Assembly: GCA_009746045.1 (NCBI GenBank) | Contig: RPFO01002263.1 | Coordinates: 1-64,000 of the forward strand | Length of the DNA stretch: 64,000 nucleotides | Reading direction: 5' to 3' | DNA from: Mesostigma viride | Taxonomy: Eukaryota > Streptophyta > Mesostigmatophyceae > Mesostigmatales > Mesostigmataceae | Shown here: in pieces, positions 5,562 through 34,065 of the stretch | Layout: each line of letters starts with the position of its first letter | Position numbering within the stretch: position 1 is the stretch's first letter | Notes under the pieces: model-generated | Database searches by the model: none | Seen by the model: only the letters and a program-made list of their open reading frames with translations | Told to the model about the DNA's origin: nothing | Translations under genes and position numbers: made by a program

Positions 5562-5578
5562 ATAGCTTACACCATCCA

Positions 5579-5665
5579 TTCCATCCGGACCATCCCATGT
5601 TCCCCAGCTCCCACTGAGGACTTATGCTCACGTGACGCAGTCACGTGTCTATTAATTAATTAACG
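5579..5665. repeat. Dispersed TTAATTAA/CACGTGAC repeat, copy 1
   Basis: About 80 bp from CCATCCCATGTTCC through the inverted repeat CACGTGACGCAGTCACGTG (5629-5647) to TATTAATTAATTAA. It recurs in reverse orientation at about 35020-35110, with a truncated third copy at 35113-35150. Confidence 0.75.
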
Positions 5666-8323: not shown

Positions 8324-8668
8324 AGTTAAAGCCCGACCGGCTCAGCTATGGCGGTCGGTCACGTTGAGCTTGGGATAAGGTGAACACAGAGAACTGCTGT
8401 CGGAGCTGGCCCACCACTGGTTTATGTCTTAGCCAGCAAACCCTATCCGGTTAGCCGTAACCGTGGGACAAGCTAGCTGTCCGTACCGACCCGGATAAGG
8501 CCCCGGACTGGGGCCTAGGTGGCGCCGGCCCTAGGCGCCGCCCTTAGACCGGTCGACCGCATCGGACCGCCGGATTATAGCCGGCGGCTTAGCGGACGCT
8601 AGCGGAAGGCGTGCGGACGGACATGGGGAACTTAGAGCCAGATCCTAGGGCTCTAGAGTTACTCAACT
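8324..8668 (-). repeat. Copia 1, 3' LTR
   Basis: 345 bp, AGTTAAAGCC ... ACTCAACT on the plus strand. It is the downstream LTR because the coding strand is minus. The adjacent internal sequence on the minus strand (AAAGAACAAAAGAG) is a weak purine-rich tract. Confidence 0.92.
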
Positions 8669-9045
8669 CCGACATACTCTTTTGTTCTTTGATTAATTAT
8701 CAAAATAATTACATCAAATGCAGACCATACAAAACCCTCTAAGGTAGGGAACTCAAGGGGGCCTCAAGGCCGTCAAAATCACCACGGTATCGACCCGCGC
8801 CCTTGTGATCACACATGAATAGTGATGTAATAAGTATCGAGAAAAAAACAACTATGCCACCAGACAAAAGGTGACCCATTTATTAGGACCAGTGACCCGC
8901 CGACGGGCCCAAGGCACCGTCCAACGTGGCTAGGGTATGGTCAGGACAAGCAAAAAAACTACCACCATGATATTCGTGAATGCTAGCAACACAGGGTGAG
9001 TTATGGCTGTATTCATAAAGCGCCCGAGCCGTAACCCTGTGTGGC
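8669..9045. other. Copia 1 region between pol stop and 3' LTR
   Basis: About 380 bp without a gene, AT-rich near 8690-8740. It presumably holds the 3' untranslated part and polypurine tract of Copia 1. Confidence 0.5.
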
Positions 9046-11364
9046 TCACGGGTGTTGCATCGTCATGCGCTTGCGCAACACTGCGTACTGCGGGGCAGCC
9101 TCCCGCGCCTCCTTGGTGAGTGCATCCGCGGGATTGAGTTCATCCGCGATGTGCTGGAGACGCGTGACGCAGGAGGCCGCCTCAGCGAGTACGAGGTAAT
9201 CAACGTCCTGTGACCGCGCATAGGGATTGTCAAGGAAGGCCAAACAACTTTGTGAGTCAGTGTGCACCGTGCTAGTCCAGTGAAGAGTGAACCCACACGA
9301 GCCAAATACCCAACCCAGCAAGTACCGCAGCCACATGCCATGTGAGATAGCTGAAACAATGCCCCGGCATTCAGCCGTGTTGGGGCTAGTGGCAATGCGG
9401 CTGTGCAAGCGCGAGTACCAATCTAACAACATGCCAGGCTGTCCCTCATTGCTAATAAAGAACAGTGCCCCCATGCGGGCCCGCACTTGGCTGACTGTGC
9501 GCGTCTCTAGATTAGCATCCGTCACTATCTCGAGGTGCACCGGCTGTGAGCAATCGAGCCCACGAAGCACAATGCCGGGCGTCATGGCCAGCTGCCGCCG
9601 AACATGAATGGACCCTAGTCCTTCCAGCACATCATCGGGCAGGCGAGCGAGCACCGCCAAATCAGGTGCCACCGTGTCCGCCAACCACCCGAGCTTGCCC
9701 TTAACCGAGGGCCCATGGGTTGCCAACAGCGGGGACGGGAGGTCGGCCAGCAGGTCAACCACATAGTTGCGGCTATCCTGCATGTGCATGACCCATTCGC
9801 CAGAACGCGAATCCCGCTGCAACGTAGACTGCACGCCGCAAAACACCACGGGTTTACCCTCCTCATGATCCACCGCCCTGCCCAGGGGAAACTTAGCCGC
9901 CACTGCAGCAAGAAACTGGGTAGCAAAGGTGCGAGGTGCCACCAGCTTGAAGTCATCGCCATGCCACACGAAGAGGGCTGGCTCGCCAGGGACGCCGGTG
10001 GGGACCACAAAGAAGTTAGGATCCGCGCGATGGTACGTGGCCCCTAAGCTCTGCAAGACCTCCTCCGCGGAAATGCGGAAGATGATGGGAGAGCTCTGCA
10101 GCCCCTCCACCCCTGTCAACAGCTCGATATACTCGCTGCCAATGGTGCCATCCTGCCAGACCACCGGGACCTTCACCACGTAGCGGGTGCCTTGCCATGT
10201 TTGCTGCGCGACCCCAGCGTCGCTGTGGAGGAATGCCCGCTGAAAGTCACCGCACCACATCCCGTAGTCCTTGCCCGCGTTCCGCTTGCCCAAGTAGATG
10301 ACCGTCAGTAGCCGATGCGAAACATGGTTGAGCCCAGGGGTATAAAGATCCTTGGCGTCCAGCGGGGAGGACCCCTTCGTCTCCGTGACCACGGGCCTTA
10401 CCCGGAACACCACCGAAGAGTTGGTCTCGTCCGGCTTGTAGGTGAGCACGAACTTCAACCGCAACCGCGTGGCCCCGGCTGGCACACTCTCCAATCCTCG
10501 GTAGACCTCGCGCTCTCGCCACTGCTCCTTGGCTCGAATGAACGCGTCGCGCCACAAAGCAAACTTGAGAGGATCTTGACAGTCCAGGACAAGTTGCTCC
10601 CACGTCACAGGGCTATCCGCCGCCAGTGAGTGTGAGTGGAGGCCGAAGCTGCGCGGGTGCCAATCCTGAGGCTGAATGATGGACTGGACGAGCGGCGGTG
10701 TGGAAAACGCCGCCATCGGTAAGCGCCGCACGACGCCGGGCTGCCCGACCACCACCCCCAATGGAGCGTGGTACTCGCGAAGCGGGATGCTGCCCACCCC
10801 CGCGACTGACAGCAAGTCAGCGGACACTGAGAACCCCGGGTATGATACGAAAGGTTCGCCCAGCAAGGCCACATCCTCGTAGCCATCCACGACGTGAAAC
10901 GGCGTGTCAATGCCCAACACCGGCAGCACCACCATCCCGGTAACTTGATATGCCGAAGTGCCTGCAAAGTCGGTCACCGATTTGTACGGCGACTCTAGCA
11001 CTGGATACAGGGTGGCTGCCCGACGAGAGATAATAGACACGGATGCTTGCGTGTCCACAGCCACCAGCTGCCACGGTCTACACGTAGGAAACAAGGCTGA
11101 CTTAACCGGCCTGACCCCCTGTGAGAGAGTTTTGACCTGAGCCACCCCTGATGCAGCTTTCGCTTTAAGCGCCTGAGCACGCCACAAGGCCGTGACCGTT
11201 GAAGCCAGGTCCCTAGGTGGGCGAGGCGCATGGGCAGGACCCTGACCCTCCGGCGAGGCCACGCTAGGCGGGCCTCCCACATTATCCGTGGCTAGCACAG
11301 GAGGTGAGTCACTACGTGCACTAGGTCCCGTCAAACCCACCCCATCCTCATCCCACCCATCCAC
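9046..11364 (-). CDS. Copia 1 Pol: protease-like, reverse transcriptase, RNase H
   Basis: 772 codons. Residues about 100-205 form a retropepsin-like domain: LVAVDTQASVSIIS (the D-T-G motif is D-T-Q), then ALLGEPFVSYPG in place of the usual ILG-D-F strand. RT follows (about 300-520): RLKFVLTYKP, then DFQRAFLHSDAG, and an active-site box FVWHGDDFKL where Copia RT normally has YVDD. After GKLGWLADT comes RNase H (about 610-755) with VTDANLE, TAECRGIV and HTDSQSCLAF supplying the acidic residues, ending NPADALTKEA. Upstream coding continues in the -1 frame (integrase) and the join lies in the run of eight G at 11389-11396. The protein would copy element RNA into DNA in a virus-like particle. Confidence 0.9.
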   Translation of the reverse strand: MDGWDEDGVGLTGPSARSDSPPVLATDNVGGPPSVASPEGQGPAHAPRPPRDLASTVTALWRAQALKAKAASGVAQVKTLSQGVRPVKSALFPTCRPWQLVAVDTQASVSIISRRAATLYPVLESPYKSVTDFAGTSAYQVTGMVVLPVLGIDTPFHVVDGYEDVALLGEPFVSYPGFSVSADLLSVAGVGSIPLREYHAPLGVVVGQPGVVRRLPMAAFSTPPLVQSIIQPQDWHPRSFGLHSHSLAADSPVTWEQLVLDCQDPLKFALWRDAFIRAKEQWREREVYRGLESVPAGATRLRLKFVLTYKPDETNSSVVFRVRPVVTETKGSSPLDAKDLYTPGLNHVSHRLLTVIYLGKRNAGKDYGMWCGDFQRAFLHSDAGVAQQTWQGTRYVVKVPVVWQDGTIGSEYIELLTGVEGLQSSPIIFRISAEEVLQSLGATYHRADPNFFVVPTGVPGEPALFVWHGDDFKLVAPRTFATQFLAAVAAKFPLGRAVDHEEGKPVVFCGVQSTLQRDSRSGEWVMHMQDSRNYVVDLLADLPSPLLATHGPSVKGKLGWLADTVAPDLAVLARLPDDVLEGLGSIHVRRQLAMTPGIVLRGLDCSQPVHLEIVTDANLETRTVSQVRARMGALFFISNEGQPGMLLDWYSRLHSRIATSPNTAECRGIVSAISHGMWLRYLLGWVFGSCGFTLHWTSTVHTDSQSCLAFLDNPYARSQDVDYLVLAEAASCVTRLQHIADELNPADALTKEAREAAPQYAVLRKRMTMQHP

Positions 11365-12146
11365 GGGGTCATATTGGGGCCCAGGGGAGGGGGGGGTGTA
11401 GCTGTGTCTGCCCCTGGGAGCGACCCGTGGGGTACCACCTCAGATGCTACGACAGGCGCATTATCCTTCACTACCCACCCCAGTGCCCTGTTGGCTGCCA
11501 GCTCACTCTCCATGCTATCCCCTTGCTTATAGCCTGCCACCGATGCCCATGGTACCCTATACACCCGATCATTCCACTCTATGTCTATGACCCGCAGCGG
11601 CCAGTCTAACTTTGTGATGGCCCCAGGCCCCTGCATGGTGCCCCGTTTGCCGCTGGGCGAGCTCTCCTTGTGGAACATGACCAACTGCCCGACCTCAAAA
11701 GCGCTAGACAAATCAGGCAGCGTGGCATCCTTGAGCCGCAGCTTGGCGGCGGTATCCTGTAGATGCTGTTGGTATGCCTCTACTACCTCGGGTGAGTAGG
11801 TGCCCGCTGACAGCCCCCGAGGCGTGACTAGCCCAAAGCCCTTGACATCAAGCACGTGCCTATGGTTGCACACATGCATGAGCTCCTTGCACCACGCCGT
11901 CTTGACCGCGTAGGATTTGCCATGTGGGTTATCCTGTCGCTTGGCTGCCACAGTCTTGACATAGCTTACAGTGCGATCTATCATGCCCATATTGCCGTGA
12001 TCCTCACGCCCCACGATGACCACGGCCTCCATCCCCGGCAAACCTTGCACACAGCGGAACTGCTGGTCTAGCATGAGCTCCACTACGGGATGAAAGAAAG
12101 CCAGGCTGATCTTGATAGCCCTGTGCAGGTCAGCCTCAACATGTGA
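11331..12146 (-). CDS. Copia 1 integrase, catalytic C-terminal part
   Basis: The minus-strand frame carries VVELMLDQQFRC (second catalytic Asp) and GMIDRTVSYVK (position of the catalytic Glu, here D in MIDRT, so the E seen in the other two elements is replaced). An SH3-like tail follows: GKRGTMQGPGAITKLDWP and VYRVPWASVAGY. It follows the N-terminal half in another frame (break near 12147) and overlaps the protease-RT frame by 34 bases. The catalytic Glu-to-Asp change could mean weak or no activity. Confidence 0.8.
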   Translation of the reverse strand, partial: SHVEADLHRAIKISLAFFHPVVELMLDQQFRCVQGLPGMEAVVIVGREDHGNMGMIDRTVSYVKTVAAKRQDNPHGKSYAVKTAWCKELMHVCNHRHVLDVKGFGLVTPRGLSAGTYSPEVVEAYQQHLQDTAAKLRLKDATLPDLSSAFEVGQLVMFHKESSPSGKRGTMQGPGAITKLDWPLRVIDIEWNDRVYRVPWASVAGYKQGDSMESELAANRALGWVVKDNAPVVASEVVPHGSLPGADTATPPPPLGPNMTPWMGGMRMGWV

Positions 12147-14113
12147 GGCAGCGGCTCAATGTAGGTGGCCTTGCTGAACCTATCCTTGACTATGAAATAG
12201 GTGTCCCCCCCTTCCATGTGCATGACATCCCCCACAAGGTACCCTCGCTCCAAGGGTGGAGTCTTGGCATGCCGCCTACGCGACTTCTTCCTGATCTTGA
12301 TGCAGGCAGGACACTGAGCACGCACATTCTTCAGCTCGTTGTATAAAGGTGCCCCCAACATGTGTGCCCCCTCTACCTCGGCTTGGGCCTCATGCCCGTA
12401 TGCACGGTGCATCTGGTATGCTAACAGTTTCAGGGTGACAGCCTGAGGTGCAGTGGCATTGTCAGGATTCTCAACAGGTGGGGTGACTACTGGGGTAGTG
12501 ACATTGGCTAACTGGGCAGCTTCAGAGGCTGCACGAAAGGCCGCCCGTGTGAGCACCTTGCCAATGTGAAGATCCACACTAGGGTGGTGTGTACCGAGAA
12601 CATCTGCCCGCCCAGCATTCTCTTGCACTGTCACAACATTCCTCATAGGCCCAACCGCCCCAGTATCTAGCTGGGGTGCTGCAGTAGTGCTTGGTCGCTC
12701 GGCGTTGTACACACCCGACCTAGAAGACACCACATTGCTTAGGTCACGCATTGTAGACCCGTGCTCAGGAAGCACGTGATCCTGGCGCGACAGAGCCAGA
12801 GCAGCATCAACGGATTGCGTGAGCACATCACGGAAGGAGACAGAGGATGCAGTCACGTTGCTTTTAGGAACGACGTCAGGCTCTACGACGGCCCGGTTCA
12901 GCGTGACGCATTGAGCAAAAGAAGGGGTATCGAGCGTGCTCTCACCTGACTTTCGTGCTGCCCGTCGCTCTGCCCACTCCTCGCGTGTGCCGTGGACGAC
13001 GATGCGCTTGGCCTTGCACGCCTCCACGCTGTGACCACGCAGAACGTCGTGGCACTTGCGGCAAAGGTTGTCCTCGAGCTCCAGGTCCGGGCGAACTCGG
13101 CAGTCATCCCGGACATGGCGACGTCCGAAGCAGCGCTCACAGCGTTGCTTGCGGTCAGTAGACGCCCCCTGCTGCCGCTTGGCCGGGGGATGATCACCCT
13201 GCTTGGCGTCGCCACCATGCCCGCGCTTGCGCCCTCGCTGGCCCCCGTTGTTGCCGTGGCCGACGACCTTTTTCAGGATGGCCGTAAGCTCCGACCGCGT
13301 AATTGGAGCCTCTGCGCCTGAAGAAGAAGACGCGCCGGCATCCACCTTGCGCAGGGATGGCAGAGCAGCCGAGGCAGCCGGCTTGGACTGCGCACTCTTG
13401 AAGCATGAGATTAAATACAGCATGCCCTCGTCGAAACTGACAGCACTCTTCTTTTTGAGTTCCGTCGCTATGGTCAGATGCACATCCGACGACAGGTCGC
13501 ATTTCTTGAGAAATCGATTGCACAGGAAAATGGGCTTGAGAGTATCTAGCAGCTTGTGCTTGTGCACGAAGACCTGGAAATCACGTGCAGCCCCGGGCAA
13601 ATTTGCCTTATTAACTGCATAGCCCTCGAAGTCGTTGAAGGCTTGCTCGTCGGCCTCTTCCTTAGACCGCGACAAGTGGGCATCTAGACCGTTGTAAAAA
13701 ACTTCCCAGGTTTGTTTGTTGTCGTCCGCAATGCGAACTAGATTGGCAATGTTTGGGTGCTTTGTTGTACTGCAGAATACTGCACGGAACTTGCCAATCA
13801 GCTCCGAATCTTTGTCTGCGCGTCCATCGCGCAGACGCTTGAGGGCAGCTAGAAAATCTGCTGCGTCGTCCGCCGTATAGTCGGCAGGTAGATCCGCGGG
13901 CACCTCCGTTTGCTTGAGAGGGCCGCGATTCAGTGCATCGTCAGCAGCAAGCATCAGATGCTTGAACTGCTTGGCCAGTTCAGGTTGCGCCACGAGGGTT
14001 TGCATCCACCTCGTGGCCTCGTCCGCACTAAAGCGTGGCAGGACGGTCCCTGCGGCCTCGCCACTTGGCGTATCTGTGTGTTCGCCCGTGCGGCTCCGTG
14101 TACCGGAAGCCAT
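12083..14113 (-). CDS. Copia 1 Gag plus integrase N-terminus
   Basis: 676 codons starting 19 bases inside the 5' LTR boundary. Residues 1-270 are a helical capsid-like region. CERCFGRRHVRDDC near 320 is a CX2CX4HX4C zinc knuckle, followed by a second Cys/His cluster (CRKCHDVLRGHSVEAC). After a Ser/Thr-rich linker comes the integrase zinc-binding start (HRAYGHE ... CPACIK) and the first catalytic Asp in GDVMHMEGGD. The last ~20 residues are out of frame: the integrase continues one base over. An isolated LDTGAVG in the linker lacks protease context. Confidence 0.88.
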   Translation of the reverse strand: MASGTRSRTGEHTDTPSGEAAGTVLPRFSADEATRWMQTLVAQPELAKQFKHLMLAADDALNRGPLKQTEVPADLPADYTADDAADFLAALKRLRDGRADKDSELIGKFRAVFCSTTKHPNIANLVRIADDNKQTWEVFYNGLDAHLSRSKEEADEQAFNDFEGYAVNKANLPGAARDFQVFVHKHKLLDTLKPIFLCNRFLKKCDLSSDVHLTIATELKKKSAVSFDEGMLYLISCFKSAQSKPAASAALPSLRKVDAGASSSSGAEAPITRSELTAILKKVVGHGNNGGQRGRKRGHGGDAKQGDHPPAKRQQGASTDRKQRCERCFGRRHVRDDCRVRPDLELEDNLCRKCHDVLRGHSVEACKAKRIVVHGTREEWAERRAARKSGESTLDTPSFAQCVTLNRAVVEPDVVPKSNVTASSVSFRDVLTQSVDAALALSRQDHVLPEHGSTMRDLSNVVSSRSGVYNAERPSTTAAPQLDTGAVGPMRNVVTVQENAGRADVLGTHHPSVDLHIGKVLTRAAFRAASEAAQLANVTTPVVTPPVENPDNATAPQAVTLKLLAYQMHRAYGHEAQAEVEGAHMLGAPLYNELKNVRAQCPACIKIRKKSRRRHAKTPPLERGYLVGDVMHMEGGDTYFIVKDRFSKATYIEPLPHMLRLTCTGLSRSAWLSFIP

Positions 14114-14317
14114 CGGGATTTTTATGAATACAAGTTAAAGCCCGACCGGCTCAGCTATGGCGGTCGGCATTACAATTCGTTCAAGTGGCCCGCCGGAGCG
14201 GCTGTACAATTTTTCCCAGTGAGCGCGCTGCCAAGTGTACTTGTGGGCAAATTTTTAGGTGCCCCGTCAGTTCGAGGTACTAAAAATTAGGCTACGGTAC
14301 GAATTCAGCGAATTTCA

Positions 14318-14522
14318 GCGAATTTTCAGTCGAACCAAAGGAAGTGACGGCAACTACCAAAAAGTTTCCGTTACGAATTTTCAGCCCAACACTCGCGCAA
14401 AATGAAGTGACGGCAACTACCAAAACGTTTCCGTTGGGAATTTTCACTCCCACACGTTTGCACAAGAGGAAGTGACGGCAACTACCAAAAAGTTTCCGCT
14501 ACGAATTTTCAGTCCCACACTT
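14318..14522 (+). repeat. Three ~64-bp tandem units in the MITE
   Basis: GAAGTGACGGCAACTACC recurs at about 14340, 14404 and 14469, each followed by a TTTCCGTT/CTACGAATTTTCA-type segment. Confidence 0.85.
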
Positions 14523-14832
14523 CGCGCAAATTTTAGTAGGGCTGCACGCAAGCTACCTTTCAAAATTTTGCGGTAGTATGGAACGCATTTCATTCGTCTG
14601 GAGGAACGCTGCCCGCCAACTACCCCCGTTCAGAAAGTTCCGCCGAAATTTACTTGAGATTTGGAAATCTGAACGTCCGCGCAAATTTTAGTAGGGCTGC
14701 ACGCAAGCCACCTTTCAAAATTTTGCGCAAGTATGGAACGCAATTCATTCGTCCGGAGGAATGCTGCTCGTCAACTGCCCCCGTTCAGAAAGTTGCGCCG
14801 AACTTTACTTGAGATTTGGAAATCTGAACGTG
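14523..14832 (+). repeat. Two 155-bp tandem units in the MITE
   Basis: CGCGCAAATTTTAGTAGGGC starts at 14523 and again at 14678. Both copies run through TTCAGAAAGTT to GGAAATCTGAACGT. Confidence 0.85.
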
Positions 14833-15269
14833 CGGTTGGAGTTTCGCGGGGAAACCCAAGTTCCCCAGTAATTCACCAATGACGCGCTTCGAACACTTGC
14901 CCGCTAAAACCTAAGCAGCCGCTCCGGCTGGCCACTTAAACGAAACTTGATGGGTGACGTTGAGCTTGGGATAAGGTGAACACAGAGAACTGCTGTCGGA
15001 GCTGGCCCACCACTGGTTTATGTCTTAGCCAGCAAACCCTATCCGGTTAGCCGTAACCGTGGGACAAGCTAGCTGTCCGTACCGACCCGGATAAGGCCCC
15101 GGACTGGGGCCTAGGTGGCGCCGGCCCTAGGCGCCGCCCTTAGACCGGTCGACCGCATCGGACCGCCGGATTATAGCCGGCGGCTTAGCGGACGCTAGCG
15201 GAAGGCGTGCGGACGGACATGGGGAACTTAGAGCCAGATCCTAGGGCTCTAGAGTTACTCAACTGCTGG

Positions 15270-16281: not shown

Positions 16282-16919
16282 AGTTAATATTGCCTGGCAA
16301 GCAATATTATTCTACTAAGCTACTTGGCTTGTAGAGATTCTACTTCCGGTTACTACAATCCAGAACCGGGTTCATTCTGATGAGTATTGCTCGAGATATG
16401 AGCAAGATACTGTTCTACTACATTCTACTTGGATTCGGTGATTCTACGGTGGTTCTTCAAGTGACGCGTGGCATACGACGTCTTGTTGACACAGTGTACG
16501 ATAGGACATTTAGTCTCCGACACTGCGGTCTATTCAATGCTATTGATTAGACGTAACAAATAGTGACAGGACTTGTGCGACAGGACACTGATGTGACTAT
16601 TTATGGATAACGAGTCGAGATCTGCTGGTCCAGAGTGAAGGACAGCAATATTGTTGTGAGATGATCTGTCCTATCAGTCATCTGGATGTGACTGCGTCAC
16701 AATTAATTAGTGTATAACGAGCAGGACGCTGCCACTTGGTAGCACCACTTTCCCTGCACCTGTGTCCTCGCACCTTTGGCGACGGTTCTCACGTGCCTCG
16801 TGCATTCTGTGCTGGTAGCCATAACCAGCAACGTAAACCTATTGATTAATATAACTACTTCCTCTGTAGATATTAATCAGTGCAGGCTGAACCACAGTTC
16901 AGTCACAGTTTCTTTAACT
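16282..16919 (+). repeat. Copia 2, 5' LTR
   Basis: 638 bp from AGTTAATATTGCC to TTTCTTTAACT. Versus the 3' LTR it carries, or lacks, blocks of 3-7 bp, for example near CTTGTTGACACAG and CTCACGTGCC. Confidence 0.92.
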
Positions 16920-16999
16920 CGAATTACAATCGAGTTCGTAATCTACTGATTACGGCATTGATTTCTGGTGTCGGCAAATTTTACGGTGTTTTCCATTAT

Positions 17000-17563
17000 A
17001 TGGAAAACACGCGTGAATATCGTGAGCCATCTCCCGAGCGTGCGTCGGCTCCGTCGTCTTCAGGCTTCAATTTCAACGTTCAACGTACGGCATCTACTGC
17101 TGAGCTGCATTCGCGTGCTGCTCAACCTTCGCTGTCTCAAGCGCTCGTCAGCAGGCCGCCGGTTTCTAACGATCTGCATCAGTTCGTCGACAACCTTGCT
17201 CAAGATTTGGAAATCCTGTCGGAAAATTCCCATATTTTCCGAAGGCTTGCAGCGTCGGGATCAGAAGAACAAGCTCAAGTAATTTCGGCGCTTCGCACCT
17301 ACGGCTTGGGTGTTCTGGCGTTGGCGACAGCGTGGTCTGAAATTTCGGCGACTCTTCCGGCTGTCGCTGTTCCGATTCGCAACGTCGAGTGGGCGTCGTC
17401 AGTCGACGGTATCATAAACGTTGCTGCTTCGATCCAGCGGCAATCAAACGCTGAGGAGCCAGGCGAAAATAGCGAGGGGCTTCCTGATTTATATCCGGGT
17501 ATTGTGCAGCAGATTTTGGATAACGCATTGCAGCATCCGCGCGACGATATGCGGCTGGATTAA
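17000..17563 (+). CDS. Copia 2 ORF0, unknown protein
   Basis: 187 residues from MENTREYREPSPERASAPSS. It starts just inside the element, ahead of Gag. An earlier ATG at 16880 would lie inside the LTR. The N-terminus is Ser/Pro-rich. The middle is helical with an acidic segment (NLAQDLEILSE), and LGVLALATAWSEIS is a short hydrophobic stretch. No zinc knuckle or known domain. It could be a diverged Gag-like or accessory protein of this element. Confidence 0.5.
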   Translation: MENTREYREPSPERASAPSSSGFNFNVQRTASTAELHSRAAQPSLSQALVSRPPVSNDLHQFVDNLAQDLEILSENSHIFRRLAASGSEEQAQVISALRTYGLGVLALATAWSEISATLPAVAVPIRNVEWASSVDGIINVAASIQRQSNAEEPGENSEGLPDLYPGIVQQILDNALQHPRDDMRLD

Positions 17564-20500: not shown

Positions 20501-20801
20501 GCAAAGGGGCCAAGGTGGGTATAGCAACCCAACCTGACAGGCTCAGCCTTCCCTGGGCTTGCTAGGGTCCGCCAGGGAGCTAGGGGGCTAAGAGTGACCC
20601 CCCCATTACTCTGGATGAAGTTGATTTGCTCCCTGCACAGGTTGAGAGTCTCCCACTTGAGGTTGAGAGTCTCCCTGCACAGGTTGAGGGTGCATCCATG
20701 ATCCATGGAGGAAGAACACAATGGGGTAGTGACTGGGTCTTCCCACGTCACCGTGGTGAAAGCAGTTACCACAAGGCAACAACGTTCCCACATGGCTCTA
20801 A

Positions 20802-23696: not shown

Positions 23697-24161
23697 TAGC
23701 TCCATGGATAGCAGGCAAGTTTCTAAGGTCAGAGGCAGCTAGGTCAGCTGGCTTGTTTGTGCTTCAGCAACATAGGCCTAGACTTGTGGCCTGGTACAGT
23801 CGTCTTCAAAGAAGGGTTGCTCTGAGTTCAGATGTCTCTGAGTGCAGAGCCATTTGTGAAGGGATTCAGTCCAGTTTGTACATCAAGGAGCTGTTGCTAG
23901 CTATGGCTTCAGTGACTCCTCATACTCTTCAGCTGGAGACCTTGATCCTGTCAGATAACATGGGCATCGGTCCAGTTTGTGCACAAGCAACTGGCCAGAA
24001 GCAGAGATCTGGATTATCTCCTGTTGAAGGAGTTGGCAGGTCTGGTGGATATTCAACATCTTCCAGGTTCTGAGAATCCTGCTGATGCCTTGACCAAGTT
24101 GCCTCACAAGTCTGCTGAGCAATATAAGCTTCTTTACAAGCTGATGATCTCCTCTGTGTGA
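23690..24161 (+). pseudogene. Copia 2 RNase H, frameshifted
   Basis: Frame 23690-24073 gives WYSRLQRRVALSSDVSECRA (acidic residue block). The C-terminal part moves to another frame (RDLDYLLLKELAGLVDIQ, then ENPADALTKLPHK) and stops at 24161. Homologous to the RNase H of the other two elements. Confidence 0.78.
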
Positions 24162-24881
24162 GTTGAGCAATTCCAGTTGGAGCTTTAAGTTTGGTGACTG
24201 TTGGGTGAGAAGAGCTTACATAGAGCTGGGCTCTGTTATGCTGAGAGCTGTGATGCTCTGAGGGCAGTAATGCTCTGTGTACATATGTGTATAATACTGT
24301 ATTCTATGTAATGCTCAGTCATGGAGCATGGTGTTGGTTGGGGGTTTGTCCTCAGCTTGAGGTTTGTCTCAACCAAAGGGATTTTATAGGGCAGGGTTCG
24401 ATTCCCTGGGGCTGCTTATAGGCGGATTTTCCCGGATTGGCTGACCCATCAACCTTGCAGTGTCCTTGCTGGTGAGGTGGCGACAGGTCCCCCTAGTTTT
24501 GTCCCAGACAGAGGAAGGTAGTTTGTCATGTGCTTAATATATTTTGTGATGTGCTATTTCTCAGTCCATGGTGGGCGCCAGTTCTGATAACTATCAATGT
24601 CTACCTGATAAGGTCTTGTGGGTAACTTGTGGGGTTCCAATCAGGAGCCATTATGGTGATGATTCCATTTTGGTCATTATTCTGGTTAGCCACAAGCTGC
24701 TACTCCAAACACTTGGCTTTCTACTTCCAGTGGATAGGGAATTCATTGTAATTCGTCATGGCTGAGATGTGTTGTGATTTGGTGCTTGCTGATTAATCCC
24801 GAGCAGAGACTACAGAGAGCTGGGAGGGATGTCAAGTGCTATGCATGTTGTTCTATATATGTGTTGCCAAGCCTAACAGCT

Positions 24882-24951
24882 CTAAAAGAAAGAAAGGGCT
24901 GGAGTTAATATGGCTGTTACGTCCAAGCTCTAAAAGAGAAGAAAGGGCTGG
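24882..24951 (+). promoter_or_regulatory. Copia 2 duplicated polypurine tract
   Basis: AAAAGAAAGAAAGGGCTGG followed by AGTTAATAT, then 58 bp later AAAAGAGAAGAAAGGGCTGG followed by the real LTR start AGTTAATAT. The polypurine tract and the first bases of the LTR are present twice. Confidence 0.75.
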
Positions 24952-25593
24952 AGTTAATATTGCATGGCAAGCAATATTATTCTACTAAGCTACTTGGCTT
25001 GTAGAGATTCTACTTCCGGTTACTACAATCCAGAACCGGGTTCATTCTGATGAGTATTGCTCGAGATATGAGCAAGATACTGTTCTACTACATTCTACTT
25101 GGATTCGGTGATTCTACGGTGGTTCTTCAAGTGACGCGTGGCATACGACGTCTTGTCACAGTGTACGATAGGACATTTAGTCTCCGACACTGCGGTCTAT
25201 TCAATGCTATTGATTAGACGTAACAAATAGTGACAGGACTTGTGCGACAGGACACTGATGTGACTATTTATGGATAACGAGTCGAGATCTGCTGGTCCAG
25301 AGTGAAGGACAGCAATATTGTGAGATGATCTGTCCTATCAGTCATCTGGATGTGACTGCGTCACAATTAATTAGTGTATAACGAGCAGGACGCTGCCACT
25401 TGGTAGCACCACTTTCCCTGCACCTGTGTCCTCGCACCTTTGGCGACGGTTCTCACGTACGTGCCGGCTCGTGCATTCTGTGCTGGTAGCCATAATAACC
25501 AGCAACGTAAACCTATTGATTAATATAACTACTTCCTCTGTAGATATTAATCAGTGCAGGCTGAACCACAGTTCAGTCACAGTTTCTTTAACT
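24952..25593 (+). repeat. Copia 2, 3' LTR
   Basis: 642 bp, AGTTAATATTGCA ... CTTTAACT, followed by the target duplication CCATC. Confidence 0.92.
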
Positions 25594-26409: not shown

Positions 26410-26882
26410 AGTTAGTCTCCATGCTTTGCTGTAGACTAAGTCTCAAAGGCATTGTGAATACAACGTATGAATAAGCCTTGTAAACCCACGTTGGTATGTG
26501 AATATAAATACCACGTGGGCTATGCAGATAGGGATGCTAGTCGAGTCGCATACGTTTCCCTAGATAGGTACTTTGGGTACTGAGGTACGTGACAGATGTC
26601 AGTACCCAGTATACGTAGTGTCCTGTCATTGGACGGTACTAGAGTATCCTAGATAGGGACCGTACTGCAGCGTGCATTGATTTGTGATCGCACGATGCAG
26701 TGACTAGGCAGCTACCTGTCATCGTGCGGCCTCGGGCCAACGGTCTGCACCCAACGGTCACTGGCGGCGCAGCCGGTGAGAGGAACGTTGATAAAGGGTA
26801 AACCTATTTTCTAATGAAGCAAGCAATTCATTGCTCCAAGCCTTCAGTGTTCTCAAGCAATATATCCCACCGCATTCTAACT
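26410..26882 (+). repeat. Copia 3, 5' LTR
   Basis: AGTTAGTCTCC ... GCATTCTAACT. The Gag ATG follows only 18 bases after the LTR. Confidence 0.95.
26503..26517 (+). promoter_or_regulatory. Probable TATA box with adjoining CACGTG in Copia 3 LTR
   Basis: TATAAATA at 26503-26510 followed directly by a CACGTG palindrome. The same pair occurs in the 3' LTR at 33686-33700. Position in the first quarter of the LTR fits a U3 promoter. Confidence 0.5.
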
Positions 26883-26900
26883 TGAATTTTATTTGCTACC

Positions 26901-28270
26901 ATGGCTATCACGAACAAGAATGTCGCTAAGAAGCTTACCTACAACGAGGATGATGATGGGCAGGATCGGCGGATGCCCAGAGACAACAACAAGAAGCCGG
27001 CTGGCGATGCGGCCATTTCCAAGAAAAAGAAAAAGAACAAAAAGACTCACAATGGTTGCCAGGACGAGGGGACGGCGGCTGCAAAGCCGACCGACCTACC
27101 CCCCTCCCCTGCGAGGCCGGAGGCCGAGACGGCTCCCCCCGGGGAGACCGGCTTACCCTCGACTCCGGCGGCCGCCCCAGCCGCAACCACGGCTGGCGCG
27201 GCCATGGCTGCGGAGACCTCGGTGGTAAACCCCACTGAGGCTCCACAGTCCGGCCCCACGTTGCCATCTCTTCGGGAGCGTATGCCCCGTCAGACGGCCT
27301 CGGTGGCACCGGACGGGACGATTACCTTTCGTCCCGCCACATCAAACCTTAATGTCCCTTTCGCCCAGGGACATAACCACATTGAGCTAACGTTTGGGCG
27401 ACCCTCTGCGTCCCTTCTTCGCAAGAAGAAGGACATGGAGAGTATTAAACTCGCACGGGTGGTGCGAAAACCTGTGGAACCCATCGCCGGACAACCAATG
27501 TCCGACGATGAGGTATCCGACACTGCCAGTCTCCCCGATGGGGAGACTGAGATCAATCTTACCCCAGCGCTCCTGGCGGTCGAGCAGGCCGCGCTGGTGG
27601 CAAATGAAGAACGCCGAGAGCGGCAGCGGGACCGAGAGGTCCGCCGAGAGGCGGCTTTTCGGCTCGCCGCTAAGCGGCAAGAATATGAAGAGGAAGCCGC
27701 CCGTCGCCTGGCTACCCACCAGGCGATGGCGGACGCGTACCGCGAGGCCACCCAGCGGTTACGTGACCTCTTAAAAAATGCTGACTATCCCATGGACTAT
27801 GCGGACAGTCAAGACCTGGCCGAGCTTGCTCGGTCAGCACACTTTAAAACCATGTCCTCCATCACCCAAGCCAGGGTCACGGAGGCCATCTTGGCCAAAC
27901 ATGGGGTGGTAGCTGAAGAAGCCCCCCCGCTGGAAACCACCAGCAAGAAACCCTCTCCCCCCCAACCCCTGCAGTACAAGGAGGGACTGCTGGCCCTGGG
28001 CGCGAGGAAGGGCAAAGAGGCGGACTGTCCAGTCCGGCCTGCTATGATCATGGGAGAACCACTCCCTGACATACCCGAGGATGAGGCTGCTTTTCAGGCA
28101 GCCCTCCGGGAGCATGAGGTACGCAAGGAGATGAAGCGTCTCATGCGGGAGGAGGCCAGGAGGAGAGCAGAGGCAGACACCCCTGCCCGCCCCTCCACCG
28201 ATGGGGCTGGACCCAGTGGGGTTACCCGGACACCCCCGGGCTCCCCCAGGGCCACCATGACCCCCCTCCC
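26901..28270 (+). CDS. Copia 3 Gag, N-terminal extension
   Basis: Starts MAITNKNVAKKLTYNEDDDG. Residues 1-130 are Lys-, Pro- and Ala-rich. About 220-320 form a long charged coiled-coil (EERRERQRDREVRREAAFRL). A further charged helix and Pro-rich tail follow. This ~450-residue extension has no counterpart in the other two elements. The frame proper ends in the C run at 28261-28266; one more C would join it to the next Gag frame. Confidence 0.75.
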
Positions 28271-29695
28271 CCTCCCCCACCACCCCAGGTTCGCCCTGTG
28301 GGTTGGGGCCCCCTCCCAAACCAGGGGGGGTGGCCAGGACCCCAGGAGGCCCTGGGGGGAGGTGCAGAGGTGCCACAGGCACCCAACAGGCCTGCTGAGG
28401 CCCCCCCAAGGAGCGGGGATGTCCTGGAACAGCTCGCCATTCTCCAGGCCCAGCTGGCCTCGTTGCAAGATCAGCAGTTAACAGCTAACCAGCTGCAAAC
28501 TGTCGAGGGCCTGCGCGCCCTGATGTCGCGGTATGAGCGGGGGACCATCAACCTGGACCCCACCCGCCTGCAACAAGCAACCGACAGCTTCTTGAGGGCC
28601 AACCCCCCTCTCACAGGTGTGTTTAACCCTCATAAAAAGGAATCCAAAATCAATATTGCTGGCTTGCCTGAGGGTCACACTGTTGAACAAGCTAAGCAAT
28701 TTGTTTTTGCTTTGGAGTATGGGATGGAAGGTCTTAACCTTAGACATCAGTTTAAGGCTCTCAGGGCCTCCTCCACATTCCATCAATCATCTCCTGCAAT
28801 CAGAGCATTGATTCAAACCTATCAGGAACGTACCCTGACACCTGAAGCAGCCATTGAACAGTGGCCTACCTTTATCACTGATCTGAAACAGCTAGTGCTT
28901 ACCAATAACCACATGGAAGCAGTAGAACGTTTCAACTGGCTTGCTGCATATAAGGTGAACAAGAATAACCTCTCTGGGGATGCAAAAACATACAGGGTAA
29001 TGATTGAGAAAGACCTTGAGCTTCTCAAGCTCCAACCAAGGTATCTCATCCACACCTGGCTAACAAAAGCTAATTTGCAACCTTCTGTCCTGGCTACCCT
29101 GCTTACAGGCCTCAAGTCCCTCTGGGACAACTTCAGAGCTGCCATGCTCTATATCGAGGAGGCAGTGGACCCCCTGGGTACTGGCAACAACCAGGCCCAG
29201 GACCCCAAGGTCCAGGGTGTCCAAGGCCACAAACGCAAGGGGCAGGCCAGCCAGGGGGGGCACCCAAGACCCACAAGTCCTCCCACCAAGGGGGCAGTGG
29301 CTCTCAGGGGCGTGGCAACACGTGGCACCGTGTGCCCCTGCATGGCAACCCCAACAACAACAACAACAACAACAACAACAGGTCCCAGCAGGGCAACAAT
29401 AACAACAGGTCCCAACAGGGCCAAAACAACAACAACAACAGGTCCCAGCAGGGCCAGAACCGGTCCCAGCAGGGAAACAACAACAACAACAACACAACAA
29501 CAACCAGCCTGGCAACCCTGGGGGGTCCATAAGGTGCCTGAGGTGCTTCCAACGAGGGCACGCACGGCACAACTGCCCCAACAACGACTCCCTGGCCAAC
29601 GGGGTGGATCTCTGCCCGGGCTGCTGGCACGCACGTCATCCCCTGGGGCCTCCAGGCAGCCGTTGCAACAGGCCTCGCTACCCAAATCAATGTGA
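28271..29695 (+). CDS. Copia 3 Gag, capsid-like part
   Basis: Frame joined to the preceding one by the C-run break. LEQLAILQAQLASLQDQQL is a short coiled coil. The region to about 29180 is an all-helical capsid-like segment (LPEGHTVEQAKQFVFALEYG; FNWLAAYKVNKNNLSGDA, the latter resembling EGYAVNKANLPGAARD in Copia 1 Gag). From 29350 the CAA microsatellite begins, and the true frame probably changes there toward the zinc knuckle. Confidence 0.75.
   Translation, partial: PPPPPQVRPVGWGPLPNQGGWPGPQEALGGGAEVPQAPNRPAEAPPRSGDVLEQLAILQAQLASLQDQQLTANQLQTVEGLRALMSRYERGTINLDPTRLQQATDSFLRANPPLTGVFNPHKKESKINIAGLPEGHTVEQAKQFVFALEYGMEGLNLRHQFKALRASSTFHQSSPAIRALIQTYQERTLTPEAAIEQWPTFITDLKQLVLTNNHMEAVERFNWLAAYKVNKNNLSGDAKTYRVMIEKDLELLKLQPRYLIHTWLTKANLQPSVLATLLTGLKSLWDNFRAAMLYIEEAVDPLGTGNNQAQDPKVQGVQGHKRKGQASQGGHPRPTSPPTKGAVALRGVATRGTVCPCMATPTTTTTTTTTGPSRATITTGPNRAKTTTTTGPSRARTGPSRETTTTTTQQQPAWQPWGVHKVPEVLPTRARTAQLPQQRLPGQRGGSLPGLLARTSSPGASRQPLQQASLPKSM
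29353..29510 (+). repeat. CAA/CAGCAGGG microsatellite in Copia 3 Gag
   Basis: Runs of CAA alternate with GGTCCCAGCAGGG, coding for Asn- or Gln-rich tracts broken by RSQQGQ in the likely frame. Repeat slippage probably explains the frame change here. Confidence 0.85.
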
Positions 29696-32600
29696 GTTCA
29701 CTCACCTTATGTACTCTGAGGATGATGATCTCATTACCATTGGGGATGGCAACCAGGGCATAATTGATTTTGAGGCAGCAACCTTACTGTCCTCCCAACA
29801 CCCTGTTCTGGAACCTTACATAAAAGCACTAACCCCTACTGTTGACAACTCCATAGATATCAAGGAGCTTGCTCATCAGCTGCACCTAGCCATGGGTCAT
29901 GAAACAGTGGCTGAGGAACTGGCCAGACGGCTGGGGGGTAGTAGCATGGGAAAACAACTCAGGAATGCAGTAAAACTGGCTAGACAACACTGTCAAGAAT
30001 GTCAGTTCAATAGCCCCAAACCTCAAAAATGGCATACTGCAACTCCTTCCACCAATAGGGGCATGATAGTGGGGGATGTGATGCACATCAACAAAGATGT
30101 CCAACCCTACCTGATCCTAAAAGACTCATGGTCCAGGTTCACAGTAATGGAACCCCTACCTGGCATGTCTGCAGGGCAGCTACGTGTTGCACTCATGATT
30201 GCTTTACCCAGATTCTACCCAGTTGACAGAATTTTGCTTGATCAACAATTTTCTTGTCTGACTGACCTGGAAGGGTGTGAAGCAATAGAGATTGCTGGGC
30301 TGGAAGATCATGAGGGTCAGGGGGTCATTGAAAGAACCATCAGATCTGTCAAAACCCTACTAGCCAAAAATCCTTCCAAGGATGCTACTTCAGGGGTCTA
30401 TTGTGACAGGGCACTCTGGTGTCATGAAATGTGCACAACCCTAAACATGAGACCTGTCTTGCATGCCACGTGGGGTGAAGTAATCCCAGCAGGCCTGCAG
30501 GCAGGTGTATATCCCCCAGAGGTGATAGCACTGTACAACACTGCACGTGCACAAACCTCAGCAAAACTGGCAGAAAAAGATAAAACCCATTCCAGGCCAG
30601 TATTCCAAAAAGGTGATCAAGTTCTCTATTACAAGGAAAACAGCTTTGGTAAGGTTGGAACTTGGCTAGGTCCAGTTACCATCCGTGGATTTACCAAAAA
30701 CAGCAAGACCGTGGAGGTCAAGCACAATATCAATGGGAAGCGTCACAGGGTGAGCTGTCATAGAATTAAGAAGTATTATTCTCCCATGGCAGACGTGCCT
30801 GGGGAAGAGTCTTTAAGCATGGACTCACTACTTCTATCTGGCAACTCCAGCATGCCCAGCAGTAGCTCTGAGCCACCAATTACTGCTGTTGACAGCACCA
30901 CAGCACCCTCTGTGAACCCTTCCACCCTCAGTGAAGCCAGGCCCACTTCACAACCTGGGGATTGCTTAACCAGGCACGAGGTAGCTGGGTTGGAAGCATT
31001 AGCTCAGCCCCAAGGCACCAAATTGTCTGCCAACCCTCCCGCTCTGAGGTCAAGATTGGCAGTCGCCTTGCAAGCATTACACAGGTCACATAAGCAACAA
31101 GCTGCTGTGGCCGCAGGGTTGGCAAAAGTCTCAGCTGTGTGCACTAGTCAGGACCCCTGGACCCTGGCAATAGACACTCAGGCACAGGTCAGTGTGATCA
31201 GTGCACAAGCCATCCCTGGTCTTGAGATTGCACCTTCATTTTGGGCACGGGTGCAGGATTTCTCAGGCCAAAGCTCACTGGATGTAGTGGGACAAGTGAT
31301 GCTCCCTATACTTGGTATTCAGACACCCTTCCAGGTGGTGGAGGGGTACTCTGGTAACACCTTGTTGGGGGAACCTTTTGTATCCTATCCTGGGGTGCTT
31401 ATCTCAGCTAATGAGCTCAGTGTCACAGGGGTGGGTGCAGTTCCTCTGGACCACTTTAAAATCCCTCTCTCCAGTATTGTCCCTGGTATGGATGCTGTCA
31501 TCAAGGCAGTCAACACTCAGTATGCACCAGGGGAGATCCCTGATCTGGACAAGTTAGTGCACAGCCAGTTCCTCCATCCCTCAGCCTTTGGGCTGGGTAA
31601 GTGGGACATAGCCATGCACTCACCCCACCAAATCTCCCACGTCATACAAGAATGCAAAACACAAAAAGGGTTTACCAAGTGGCTGATGGCCATTGTCCAC
31701 CAAGCCAGGCAGGAATGGGTCCTGCCCAACCCCAAAAACCCTCAATACAAACCGCCTGTCACCCCTTCATGGGACGTGCCAGAGGGAGCCAAAAAGCTCA
31801 GATTAAAATTTGTTCTCAAACAAAAACCACAAAAAGTGGGCTCCCCAATCTTCCATGCCAGACCATGTGTCACAGAATTAAAGGGGACCTCCACACTGCC
31901 AAAAGGGGAAACATACACACCTGGGCTGCAACAAACCTCACTCAGGATCATGCTCTCCCTCTTCCTCCACAACCTCAATGCAGGCCAAGACTATGTCTGC
32001 AAAGCCACTGATATTAAAAGGGCCTTCCTCAGGGGGGACCCAGAAAAGGCTGAATCTGTGTGGAAAGGGAAGGTGTACGTGGTAGACACCCCAGCTGTGT
32101 GGAAACCTTATATTGATGAGCCCCACCTTATCATCAACATTGGGGTGGAAGGGCTTGTCAGTGCCCCAAAAATTTTCAGAGACTCAGCAGAGGAAGTATT
32201 CAAAAAGCTCAAGGCCACGTATGATGACCTGGACCCATGCTTTTTTGTTGTACCCACCCCCTCTGGACTGCTGTTCTTTGTGTGGCATGGAGATGACCAA
32301 CTCATTTGTGGGCCTAGAGCTGAGGTGGAAACCTTTATTCAGCAGGTCCAGGAATCATATGAGATTGGCAAACAGGTGGAATTGAGCACAACCCCCATCC
32401 AGTTCTGTGGCATCATGTTGCAGCTGCATAGGCAGCCAGATCAGTGGGTCTGCTCTCTCTCCCCTCCTGCAGAATATATCCAAGATTGTCTAGATCTGCT
32501 GCAGGACAACTACCTCCCCTTACATATGTGTGCCACTGTTCAGGGCAAACTGGGGTGGTGGTCAGCCATCTGTGGGGCTCCCTTAGCTGTCATCAGCAGG

Positions 32601-33218
32601 GTCACCCATGATGTTCTAGTCAAGATCAAATGCAGTCACATCAGGAAGTTGGTCAATGACTGTCCCCCCCTCATCCTCCATGGCCTGAATCTGATGGAAG
32701 ACATCCACATCCAATGTGTCATGGACAGCTCCATGGAGAGCAGAACAATCAATCAGATGGGGGCACGGGAATCAGGGCTGTTTTTTCTCACCAACAGGTC
32801 AGATTACATGTCCCTCACTTCCTGGTACAGCAGGCTACACCGCAGAAAACCTGGCAGCAGCAACTCAGCTGAATGTCGTGCTGTGGTGTCTGCTGCATTG
32901 CATGCTCGTTCCCTGCAGCACATGCTCACCTGGCTACAAACCCAGGCAGGCAGCACATGCAATGTCATCTCACATCTCTATACTGACAGCCAATCTGTGA
33001 TCAGTTTTCTAACCAAGAAATCTGTCTCTGCTGCTGTCCACACTGACTTGGATTGGGTGATCCTCAAACAGGAGGCCACCTATTTTTCCAGCTGGACTCA
33101 TGTGGATGATGAGGACAACCCAGCAGACGCTCTCACGAAGCTGCGGGATGCTGCTGGCCAACAGTACCAGCTCCTCTTTCAGAACATGAACCCCTATGAT
33201 ATCAGAGTCAGTGTTTGA
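29521..33218 (+). CDS. Copia 3 zinc knuckle and Pol (INT-PR-RT-RNase H)
   Basis: The frame is open through IRCLRCFQRGHARHNC (CX2CX4HX4C at about 29530-29575) and a second Cys cluster (CPGCWHARH). Integrase: LHLAMGHE ... CQECQF, then IVGDVMHINKD (D), ILLDQQFSCL (D), GQGVIERTIRSVK (E), SH3-like tail GKVGTWLGPVTIRGF. Protease-like at 31160-31430: LAIDTQAQVSVIS and TLLGEPFVSYPGVLIS. RT at 31790-32560: LRLKFVLKQKP, DIKRAFLRGDPEKAE, FVWHGDDQLIC, GKLGWWSAICGAP. RNase H to the stop: VMDSSMESRT, SAECRAVVSAA, YTDSQSVISFL, DNPADALTK. The first residues listed by position are upstream of any ATG, as expected if Pol is translated through from Gag. The most complete Pol in the window. Confidence 0.93.
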
Positions 33219-33592
33219 ATAAATGACTGGCCATAGCACAGTACACAACCACCACACCCCCTTACCACAGCGATAGCTGCTGGGCGCCATAAAATTCAAC
33301 ACATTCGTTGTGGGGTGTGAGTGCTGGCTAGGTCAGATTTGTATCCATTTGCAGCTTGAGGACACAAGCTTTGTATCCATTTACTTAATGTGTGCTTCAG
33401 TACCTGGCCAAACCAGCCAGCTGTGTACACCTTATTTAATGTGCAATATAACACCTGGCCAGAACAGCCAGCTGTAACCAACCTGGCTCAACCAGCCATG
33501 TCTCTTTTGTACCCCTAATCAACTTAAAAACAATAACAATAATGTTGGGGGTGCAGACCTGCATTAAGAAATAAATAATAAAACAATACTGG
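33219..33592 (+). other. Copia 3 region between pol stop and 3' LTR
   Basis: 374 bp with CCTGGCCA-type repeats (ACCTGGCCAAACCAGCCAGC, ACCTGGCCAGAACAGCCAGC, CCTGGCTCAACCAGCCA at about 33400-33500) and an A-rich end (AAATAAATAATAAAACAATACTGG) before the LTR. No gene. Confidence 0.6.
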
Positions 33593-34065
33593 AGTTAGTC
33601 TCCATGCTTTGCTGTAGACTAAGTCTCAAAGGCATTGTGAATACAACGTATGAATAAGCCTTGTAAACCCACGTTGGTATGTGAATATAAATACCACGTG
33701 GGCTATGCAGATAGGGATGCTAGTCGAGTCGCATACGTTTCCCTAGATAGGTACTTTGGGTACTGAGGTACGTGACAGATGTCAGTACCCAGTATACGTA
33801 GTGTCCTGTCATTGGACGGTACTAGAGTATCCTAGATAGGGACCGTACTGCAGCGTGCATTGATTTGTGATCGCACGATGCAGTGACTAGGCAGCTACCT
33901 GTCATCGTGCGGCCTCGGGCCAACGGTCTGCACCCAACGGTCACTGGCGGCGCAGCCGGTGAGAGGAACGTTGATAAAGGGTAAACCTATTTTCTAATGA
34001 AGCAAGCAATTCATTGCTCCAAGCCTTCAGTGTTCTCAAGCAATATATCCCACCGCATTCTAACT
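33593..34065 (+). repeat. Copia 3, 3' LTR
   Basis: 473 bp, no difference from the 5' LTR found by eye; followed by GGTGG. Confidence 0.95.

What the first reader, a model, noticed from the sequence alone, without database searches (positions are those of the whole stretch)
8324..34065. Three Copia-like retrotransposons with integrase before protease (Gag-INT-PR-RT-RH)
Seen in sequence: in all three elements the integrase (H...C zinc region and D, D, E motifs) comes directly after the Gag zinc knuckle. A retropepsin-like domain (hydrophobic-DT-x-A-x-VS, then LLG/ILG-x-x-F) lies between integrase and RT. Known families: Ty1/copia is PR-INT-RT-RH and Ty3/gypsy is PR-RT-RH-INT. I know of no described lineage with INT-PR-RT-RH. 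Three independent copies with different sequence make chance unlikely. This could be a new clade of LTR retrotransposons.
Basis: partly seen in the sequence, partly recalled or inferred. Interest (0 to 1): 0.88.

Follow-up and report, generated by a model that had tools for sequence, protein, structure and literature searches.

The report
Retrotransposons with reshuffled enzymes, self-encoded primer
Three mobile elements in this eukaryotic DNA carry their integrating enzyme before their protease, an order we found in no described family, and each seems to carry its own matching primer for copying itself instead of borrowing a host tRNA.

Summary
E1 (8324-15264, minus), E2 (16282-25593) and E3 (26410-34065) are LTR elements with 5-bp target-site duplications, inserted in one repeat copy. 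Their order is Gag zinc knuckle - integrase - retropepsin-like domain - RT - RNase H. The 50 listed Foldseek rows are all integrases for INT and all retropepsins for PR (none below E 0.001). A fourth family, E4 (L061), has INT-PR-RT-RH in one 1196-aa frame; its PR segment is identical in 150 of 150 scored copies. A canonical copia element of the same genome is PR-INT-RT, with TG..CA LTRs and a tRNA-type PBS. E1-E4 have AGTT..TAACT LTRs and no TGG-type PBS. New finding: the 12, 11, 10 and 10 nt directly after the 5' LTR are perfectly complementary to one site in the element's own 3' UTR, in register with the LTR end, with different letters in each family (4 of 4; cross-matches only 3-6 nt). I read this as a self-encoded primer in the 3' UTR, unlike Tf1-type self-primers at the mRNA 5' end. 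RT is remotely copia-like. Relatives outside this genome were not found, but the main protein database was off.

The parts
8324..15264 (-). Element E1, LTR to LTR; TSD CCAGC on the element strand
14133..15264 (-). E1 5' LTR (1132 bp, AGTTG..TAACT), with 787 bp, including minisatellites, that the 3' LTR lacks
8324..8668 (-). E1 3' LTR (345 bp)
14121..14132 (-). E1 primer-binding site, 12 nt directly after the 5' LTR
9008..9019 (-). E1 3'-UTR segment perfectly complementary to the PBS (proposed primer), in a hairpin loop in the predicted fold
12086..14134 (-). E1 Gag, CCHC knuckle (13100-13141) and N-terminal part of integrase
11334..12155 (-). E1 C-terminal part of integrase, in another frame; third acidic position is D (MIDRTV)
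9049..11439 (-). E1 PR (DTQA about 11055, LLGEPF about 10866), RT (HGDD about 9963), RNase H, 797-aa frame
16282..25593 (+). Element E2, LTR to LTR, with broken frames; LTRs 16282-16919 and 24952-25593 (97.2%); TSD CCATC
16920..16930 (+). E2 PBS (11 nt)
24745..24755 (+). E2 3'-UTR segment complementary to the PBS
20928..21929 (+). E2 integrase region
22116..22716 (+). E2 retropepsin-like domain (DTNA at 22173; ILGQNF), frame broken inside
22815..24146 (+). E2 RT and RNase H pieces
26410..34065 (+). Element E3, LTR to LTR; LTRs 26410-26882 and 33593-34065 identical; TSD GGTGG
26883..26892 (+). E3 PBS (10 nt)
33289..33298 (+). E3 3'-UTR segment complementary to the PBS; present in 30 of 30 fetched copies, the window's own among them
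26886..29695 (+). E3 gag region in two overlapping frames
29403..33218 (+). E3 CCHC - integrase - retropepsin-like - RT - RNase H in one 1271-aa frame
29820..30849 (+). E3 integrase region folded (HHCC, DDE, SH3/Tudor-like C-terminal part)
31110..31637 (+). E3 retropepsin-like region folded
31740..33215 (+). E3 RT and RNase H

Best explanation
E1-E3 (with E4, and a fragment of E5, elsewhere in the genome) are LTR retrotransposons of a copia-related but distinct kind. Gag and Pol are made, the Pol order being integrase, retropepsin-like protease, RT, RNase H (order shown; activity inferred). In the particle the RNA folds so that a 10-12 nt stretch of its own 3' UTR, between the pol stop and the 3' LTR, pairs with the PBS next to the 5' LTR (complementarity shown; folding inferred). 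A cut just 3' of that stretch leaves a 3'-OH that primes minus-strand DNA at exactly the LTR end (inferred). When the plus strand copies the primer, the PBS is rewritten from it, which keeps the two matched while the letters drift between families (inferred). The rest is the ordinary LTR cycle: template jumps, plus strand from a purine tract, and integration by the integrase with a 5-bp duplication and AGTT..TAACT ends (ends and TSD shown).
For: Order: E1-E3; E4 in one 1196-aa frame, with 101 of 150 scored copies in open frames of 1196 or 1198 aa (my count of the table). Folds. Copia-related RT: RVT_2 in E3, E 1.2e-4; hhalign E 7.6e-6 over 197 columns. Primer: the longest complement of the 25 nt after the LTR lay in the 3' UTR and began at the LTR end in 3 of 3 elements tested without fixing position or offset (E1's offset of 1 was a coordinate slip, corrected). 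Only 0.17%, 0.45% and 1.4% of positions in E1, E2 and E3 have so long an anchored complement. Dinucleotide shuffles of the 3' UTR reached the match in 0, 0, 9 (E1-E3) and 26 (E4) of 20000. E4, found afterwards, has 10 nt in the same register. Longest non-nested match at other offsets in the first 170 nt: 8, 7, 7, 8. PBS x 3' UTR matrix: own 12/11/10/10, others 3-6. E2 and E4 differ at PBS position 2 by a compensated G:C to A:U change. The 5' LTRs hold only 4, 5, 6 and 5 nt. The canonical copia control has a tRNA-type PBS and only 3 nt in its short (101 nt) 3' UTR.
Against: No RNA data and no mapped RNA ends. A hairpin around the primer is supported for E1 (z -2.6) and weakly for E3 (z -1.8), not for E2 (z +0.9); and E2's own PBS sits in a stable local hairpin (z -3.1) that would have to open. 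Extra pairing beyond the 10-12 nt is not significant (combined p 0.055). Whole-3'-UTR duplex energies do not single out the site in E1 (-27.1, against control windows down to -35.3 and -30.0 with E3's 3' UTR); E2 ties its best control window, though by the script's ranges some control windows overlap its 3' UTR; only E3 stands out. E4 also has a chance 9-nt match 16 nt before the LTR end. All families come from one genome. Pfam recognises no RVT_2 in E1 or E4. The PR lacks the DTG/DSG glycine, and E1 has D for E in the integrase triad.
Confidence: 0.64

Rival explanations
1. The order and lineage are real, but the PBS/3'-UTR pairing is a long-range contact that circularises or packages the RNA; the primer is some other RNA.
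For: From recall, some LTR elements and RNA viruses use end-to-end pairing. No cut site or small RNA is shown here; the hairpin around the site is not supported in E2, whose PBS is itself in a stable hairpin.
Against: The match starts exactly at the LTR end in 4 of 4 families (in E3 one further base into the LTR also pairs), as expected of a primer but not of a plain contact; no PBS begins with the TGG seen in the canonical element.
Confidence: 0.23
2. Ordinary copia elements: the INT-PR order is an artefact of nested insertion, recombination or misassembly, or the DTQ/DTN domain is not a protease and the true one lies before integrase.
For: Pfam recognises neither INT nor PR; E1 and E2 are split over frames; E1 has one DTG between knuckle and integrase (12659-12667). 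A published plant survey discarded unexpected orders as likely mispredictions (PMC6317226, passages).
Against: Same order in four families, one in a single frame repeated in many copies. Only retropepsins among the 50 listed hits. No D[ST]G in the E3 and E4 pol frames or in E2 20802-22319. The canonical element in the same genome has its PR before INT (PR recognised by eye).
Confidence: 0.05
3. [quoted passage not shown] the 3'-UTR match is coincidence.
For: Self-priming is known in Tf1/sushi elements and proposed for copia TAR elements (passages).
Against: The complement anchored in the 5' LTR is only 4, 5, 6 and 5 nt in E1-E4, against 12, 11, 10, 10 in the 3' UTR.
Confidence: 0.03
4. The retropepsin-like domain has lost catalysis (G to Q/N) and is now structural; Gag-Pol is processed by a host protease. 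Compatible with the best explanation for the rest.
For: DTQ in E1 and E3, DTN in E2 and E4.
Against: Amplified families keep the aspartate and the motifs of the fold; the canonical copia of this genome also departs from DSG (DSA).
Confidence: 0.2

Closest known systems
Ty1/copia (Pseudoviridae)
   Same: RT remotely of copia kind, integrase before RT, copia-like H-x4-H..C-x1-2-C start of integrase (by eye), RNase H ending in NPADALTK (by eye), 5-bp TSD
   Different: PR lies after INT; LTRs AGTT..TAACT, not TG..CA; PBS does not begin TGG; INT and PR show no sequence-level match to the canonical copia of the same genome
Gmr1 Ty3/gypsy elements
   Same: A precedent for moved pol domains: INT upstream of RT (passages of PMC8220671 and PMC2774666)
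   Different: Gypsy RT; per the cited title (Goodwin and Poulter 2002, seen in reference lists only) it has the copia-like order, so it is not INT-PR
Tf1/Tj1 self-priming elements
   Same: PBS complementary to the element's own RNA and not tRNA-based (passages)
   Different: [quoted passage not shown] here it lies in the 3' UTR
TARE1 and other LTRs without TG..CA
   Same: Atypical LTR ends can be amplified to high copy number (abstract and passages of PMC3701649)
   Different: TARE1 is a one-base change (TA..CA); here both ends differ (AG..CT) in all four families with both LTR ends seen

Membership tests
Ty1/copia | RT of the RVT_2 type | tested here: inconclusive
   E3 22.2 bits, E 1.2e-4, below the curated 31.6; E2 E 0.1; E1 none; E4 none; hhalign of E1-E4 against canonical copia RT E 7.6e-6, prob 84%
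Ty1/copia | pol order PR-INT-RT-RH | tested here: not met
   INT-PR-RT-RH in E1-E4
Ty1/copia | LTRs TG..CA | tested here: not met
   AGTT..TAACT in E1-E4
Ty1/copia | tRNA-type PBS (3' end of a tRNA, TGG..) | tested here: not met
   PBS begin TGT, CGA, TGA, CAA; half-tRNA priming was not tested
Ty1/copia | short TSD (5 bp) | tested here: met
   CCAGC, CCATC, GGTGG, GAGTC for E4
Ty3/gypsy | integrase after RNase H | tested here: not met
Retroviral-type integrase | zinc N-domain, DDE core, SH3-like C-domain | tested here: met
   E3 model, (core 1.8 A over 77 residues); E1 has D in the third acidic position
Retropepsin | fold | tested here: met
   [not shown]
Retropepsin | D-[ST]-G active site | tested here: not met
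   DTQ/DTN
Tf1-type self-priming | PBS complementary to the element's own RNA | tested here: met
[quoted passage not shown]
   only 4, 5, 6 and 5 nt anchored in the 5' LTRs of E1-E4; transcript start not mapped

The most novel reading that the evidence does not exclude
A deep relative of copia in which the protease lies behind the integrase and tRNA priming was replaced by a primer carried in the element's own 3' UTR, rewritten into the PBS each cycle; in part of the lineage (E2, E4, E5) a tRNA T-arm or Pol III B-box in the 3' UTR may help to make or release that primer.
Probability: 0.5. Interest if true: 0.88.

Novelty: new variant of a known kind. Interest (0 to 1): 0.8.

Why it matters
Pol domain order is used to sort LTR elements into superfamilies, and a large plant survey discarded unexpected orders as likely errors (PMC6317226, passage), so such lineages may be overlooked. 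A primer in the 3' UTR would be a further way to start reverse transcription in LTR elements, beside tRNAs and 5'-end self-primers. It is directly testable because each family predicts its own primer sequence.

Tried and rejected
PDB sequence search of the E3 pol at E <= 1: nothing (8).

Longer pairing beyond the 10-12 nt: not significant. Whole-3'-UTR duplex energies did not separate E1 or E2 from control windows. A shared hairpin for E2 and E4 was not convincing. The Rfam mascRNA-like hits (19.7 and 15.1 bits) are far below the gathering score of 42.5. L073 was fetched as a diverged E2 relative; it proved an E2-like rearranged copy (96.6% over the main stretch) next to the 3' end of a fifth family, E5, whose PBS I could not look up because the genome search stayed busy. 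Host identity (a chlorophyll-binding family search) did not complete. The RT tree cannot place the lineage among copia clades, nor show that E1-E4 are one clade; the gypsy row is too long-branched.

Literature searches: 11, 30, 35, 36, 38, 55, 106, 107 (58, 10, 118, 5, 0, 39, 24 and 93 papers held the terms; 20, 10, 10, 5, 0, 15, 12 and 15 were listed). 'INT-PR-RT', 'int-prot-rt', 'gag-int-prot' and 'integrase-protease-reverse' gave 0 papers (38). I found no report of this order or of a 3'-UTR self-primer in these listings and in passages of six papers; the library holds open-licence papers only. No paper was read whole.

Full report
What is there. The window lies in a genome of 440 Mb in 2243 contigs, of eukaryotic size; the host is not identified. 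One repeat copy (it looks like a non-LTR element by eye; Pfam found no family in two frames of its paralogue region), with a paralogue at 35173-37693, has been hit by three LTR retrotransposons: E1 8324-15264 minus, E2 16282-25593 plus, E3 26410-34065 plus. Each is flanked by a 5-bp duplication (CCAGC, CCATC, GGTGG). The LTRs begin AGTT and end TAACT in all three, not TG..CA. E3's LTRs are identical, E2's are 97.2% alike, and E1's share 312 bp at 99.7% while its 5' LTR carries 787 bp more, including minisatellites.

A fourth family settles artefact doubts. A search with the E2 RT gave 138 scored matches, 98 at 78% or more and 40 at 65-66% (my count). One of the 40, fetched as L061, is a complete element, E4: LTRs 1590-2284 and 8925-9621, TSD GAGTC, and one 1196-aa frame INT-PR-RT-RH with DTNA at aa 533 and LGQNFLG at 597. 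A search with its PR segment scored 150 candidates; 150 of 150 are 100% identical over 172 aa and 101 of 150 sit in open frames of 1196 or 1198 aa (my count). E1's RT-RH has 90 of 90 scored copies at 100%, and E3's 87 of 87 at 98-100%. The tool scores only the best candidates, so these are lower bounds. They suggest recent amplification, not that any copy is active.

Internal control. The same genome holds canonical copia families (150 scored RVT_2 hits, all above the cut-off). One, on contig C712, reads CCHC - PR (VLDSAASSH, recognised by eye) - INT - RT - RH, with rve and RVT_2 found by Pfam, TG..CA LTRs and PBS TGGTATCGGAGG. In a tree of 9 RT rows, four canonical copia rows form a clade on a branch of 3.6 changes per column (99/100); E1-E4 are unresolved among themselves and the long gypsy row falls beside E3 with weak support (42/68), so their unity rests on the shared architecture. 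hhalign ties the E1-E4 RT to the canonical RT (E 7.6e-6, prob 84%), but finds nothing for INT or PR. So the RT is copia-related, while INT and PR are very diverged or of other origin.

The primer. None of the PBS positions begins TGG. I searched each element for the longest complement of the 25 nt after the 5' LTR without fixing position or offset. In 3 of 3 the best lay between the pol stop and the 3' LTR and began at the first base after the LTR: 12 nt (E1, whose offset of 1 was a coordinate slip corrected), 11 nt (E2), 10 nt (E3). In E3 one further base into the LTR also pairs. So long an anchored complement occurs at 0.17%, 0.45% and 1.4% of positions of E1, E2 and E3. Anchored lengths in the 5' LTR are 4, 5, 6 and, for E4, 5. 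Dinucleotide-shuffled 3' UTRs contain the match in 0, 0, 9 and, for E4, 26 of 20000 trials. E4, examined afterwards, has 10 nt at offset 0, its only copy in the element; a chance 9-nt match also exists 16 nt before its LTR end. Each PBS matches only its own 3' UTR: 12, 11, 10, 10 against 3-6 for the other three. E2 (CGAATTACAAT) and E4 (CAAATTACAA) differ by a compensated G:C to A:U change. The canonical copia control has 3 nt in its 101-nt 3' UTR and 5 nt in the element pieces searched. In E3 copies the segment is present in 30 of 30 fetched, the window's own among them; 68 of 380 columns of that alignment vary and none of its 10 does, which is weak evidence alone.

Reading. A mere end-to-end contact need not start at the LTR end, but a primer must, because the first base it adds defines the end of U5. 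Copying the primer into the plus strand would rewrite the PBS each cycle and explain perfect matches that stop at 10-12 nt. [quoted passage not shown] How a 3'-OH is made here is unknown. The segment lies in the loop of a supported hairpin in E1 (z -2.61) and in a mostly single-stranded junction in E3 (z -1.84), but E2's region is no more stable than shuffles (z 0.92) and E2's PBS lies in a stable hairpin of its own (z -3.05); E4's was not folded singly.

What argues against or limits this. Pairing beyond the core is not significant. Duplex energies over whole 3' UTRs do not stand out for E1 (own -27.1; best control -35.3; -30.0 with E3's 3' UTR), tie the best control for E2, where some control windows overlap the 3' UTR, and stand out only for E3. 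All families come from one genome. No RNA evidence exists here. The PR lacks the usual glycine, E1's integrase has D for E, and E1 carries one DTG between knuckle and integrase.

Literature. [quoted passage not shown] Gmr1 shows that integrase can move (passages). Searches for the order by name returned 0 papers. Absence from print is claimed only for the open-licence library as searched.

Noticed in passing
E2 3' UTR 24395-24405; L061 8370-8380; L073 reverse strand 885-895 (E5): A perfect Pol III B-box / tRNA T-arm (GGTTCRANTCC, 11 of 11; consensus recalled) in the 3' UTRs of E2, E4 and E5 (1, 1 and 0 of 1000 mononucleotide shuffles), not in E1 (9 of 11) or E3 (8 of 11); in E2 and E4 it lies about 340-360 nt upstream of the proposed primer. 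Role unknown.
   Followed up: partly
E3 copies, pol residue about 497; E1 frame break near 11367-11445: 9 of 30 fetched E3 copies have their last in-frame stop at the same place between INT and PR, 3 have it elsewhere and 18 have none in the 500 codons read; one such copy differs from the window's by a single gap over 1500 nt. E1 is split near the same place, and 79 of 90 scored E1 copies share a 797-aa PR-RT-RH frame (my count). Possibly a regulated frame junction.
   Followed up: partly
14133-15264 versus 8324-8668: E1's two LTRs differ by 787 bp, including tandem repeats of about 63 and 155 bp, though their shared 312 bp are 99.7% identical.
   Followed up: no
11967-11984 (minus): E1 integrase has D where E2, E3 and E4 have E in the third catalytic position (MIDRTV).
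   Followed up: partly
L073, reverse strand 3-1740: 3' end of a fifth family, E5 (RNase H end, 3' UTR, LTR starting AGTTAGC), beside an E2-like rearranged copy.
   Followed up: partly
58258-58717: Three tRNA matches of about 101 bp, so probably with introns, in tandem on the minus strand (Rfam tRNA, 54.9, 54.9 and 54.8 bits); ARAGORN under its bacterial setting reported none.
   Followed up: no
49003-49755: Transposase family tnp2 (Pfam Transposase_21, E 2e-16).
   Followed up: no
5451-5585 and 38488-38622: Inverted pair of 135 nt, 99% complementary, 33 kb apart around the nest.
   Followed up: no
45182-45651: Array of 63-bp repeats inside a 325-aa open frame.
   Followed up: no
L072, canonical copia frame 1-1398: The canonical copia protease of this genome reads DSA, not DSG (by eye).
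   Followed up: no
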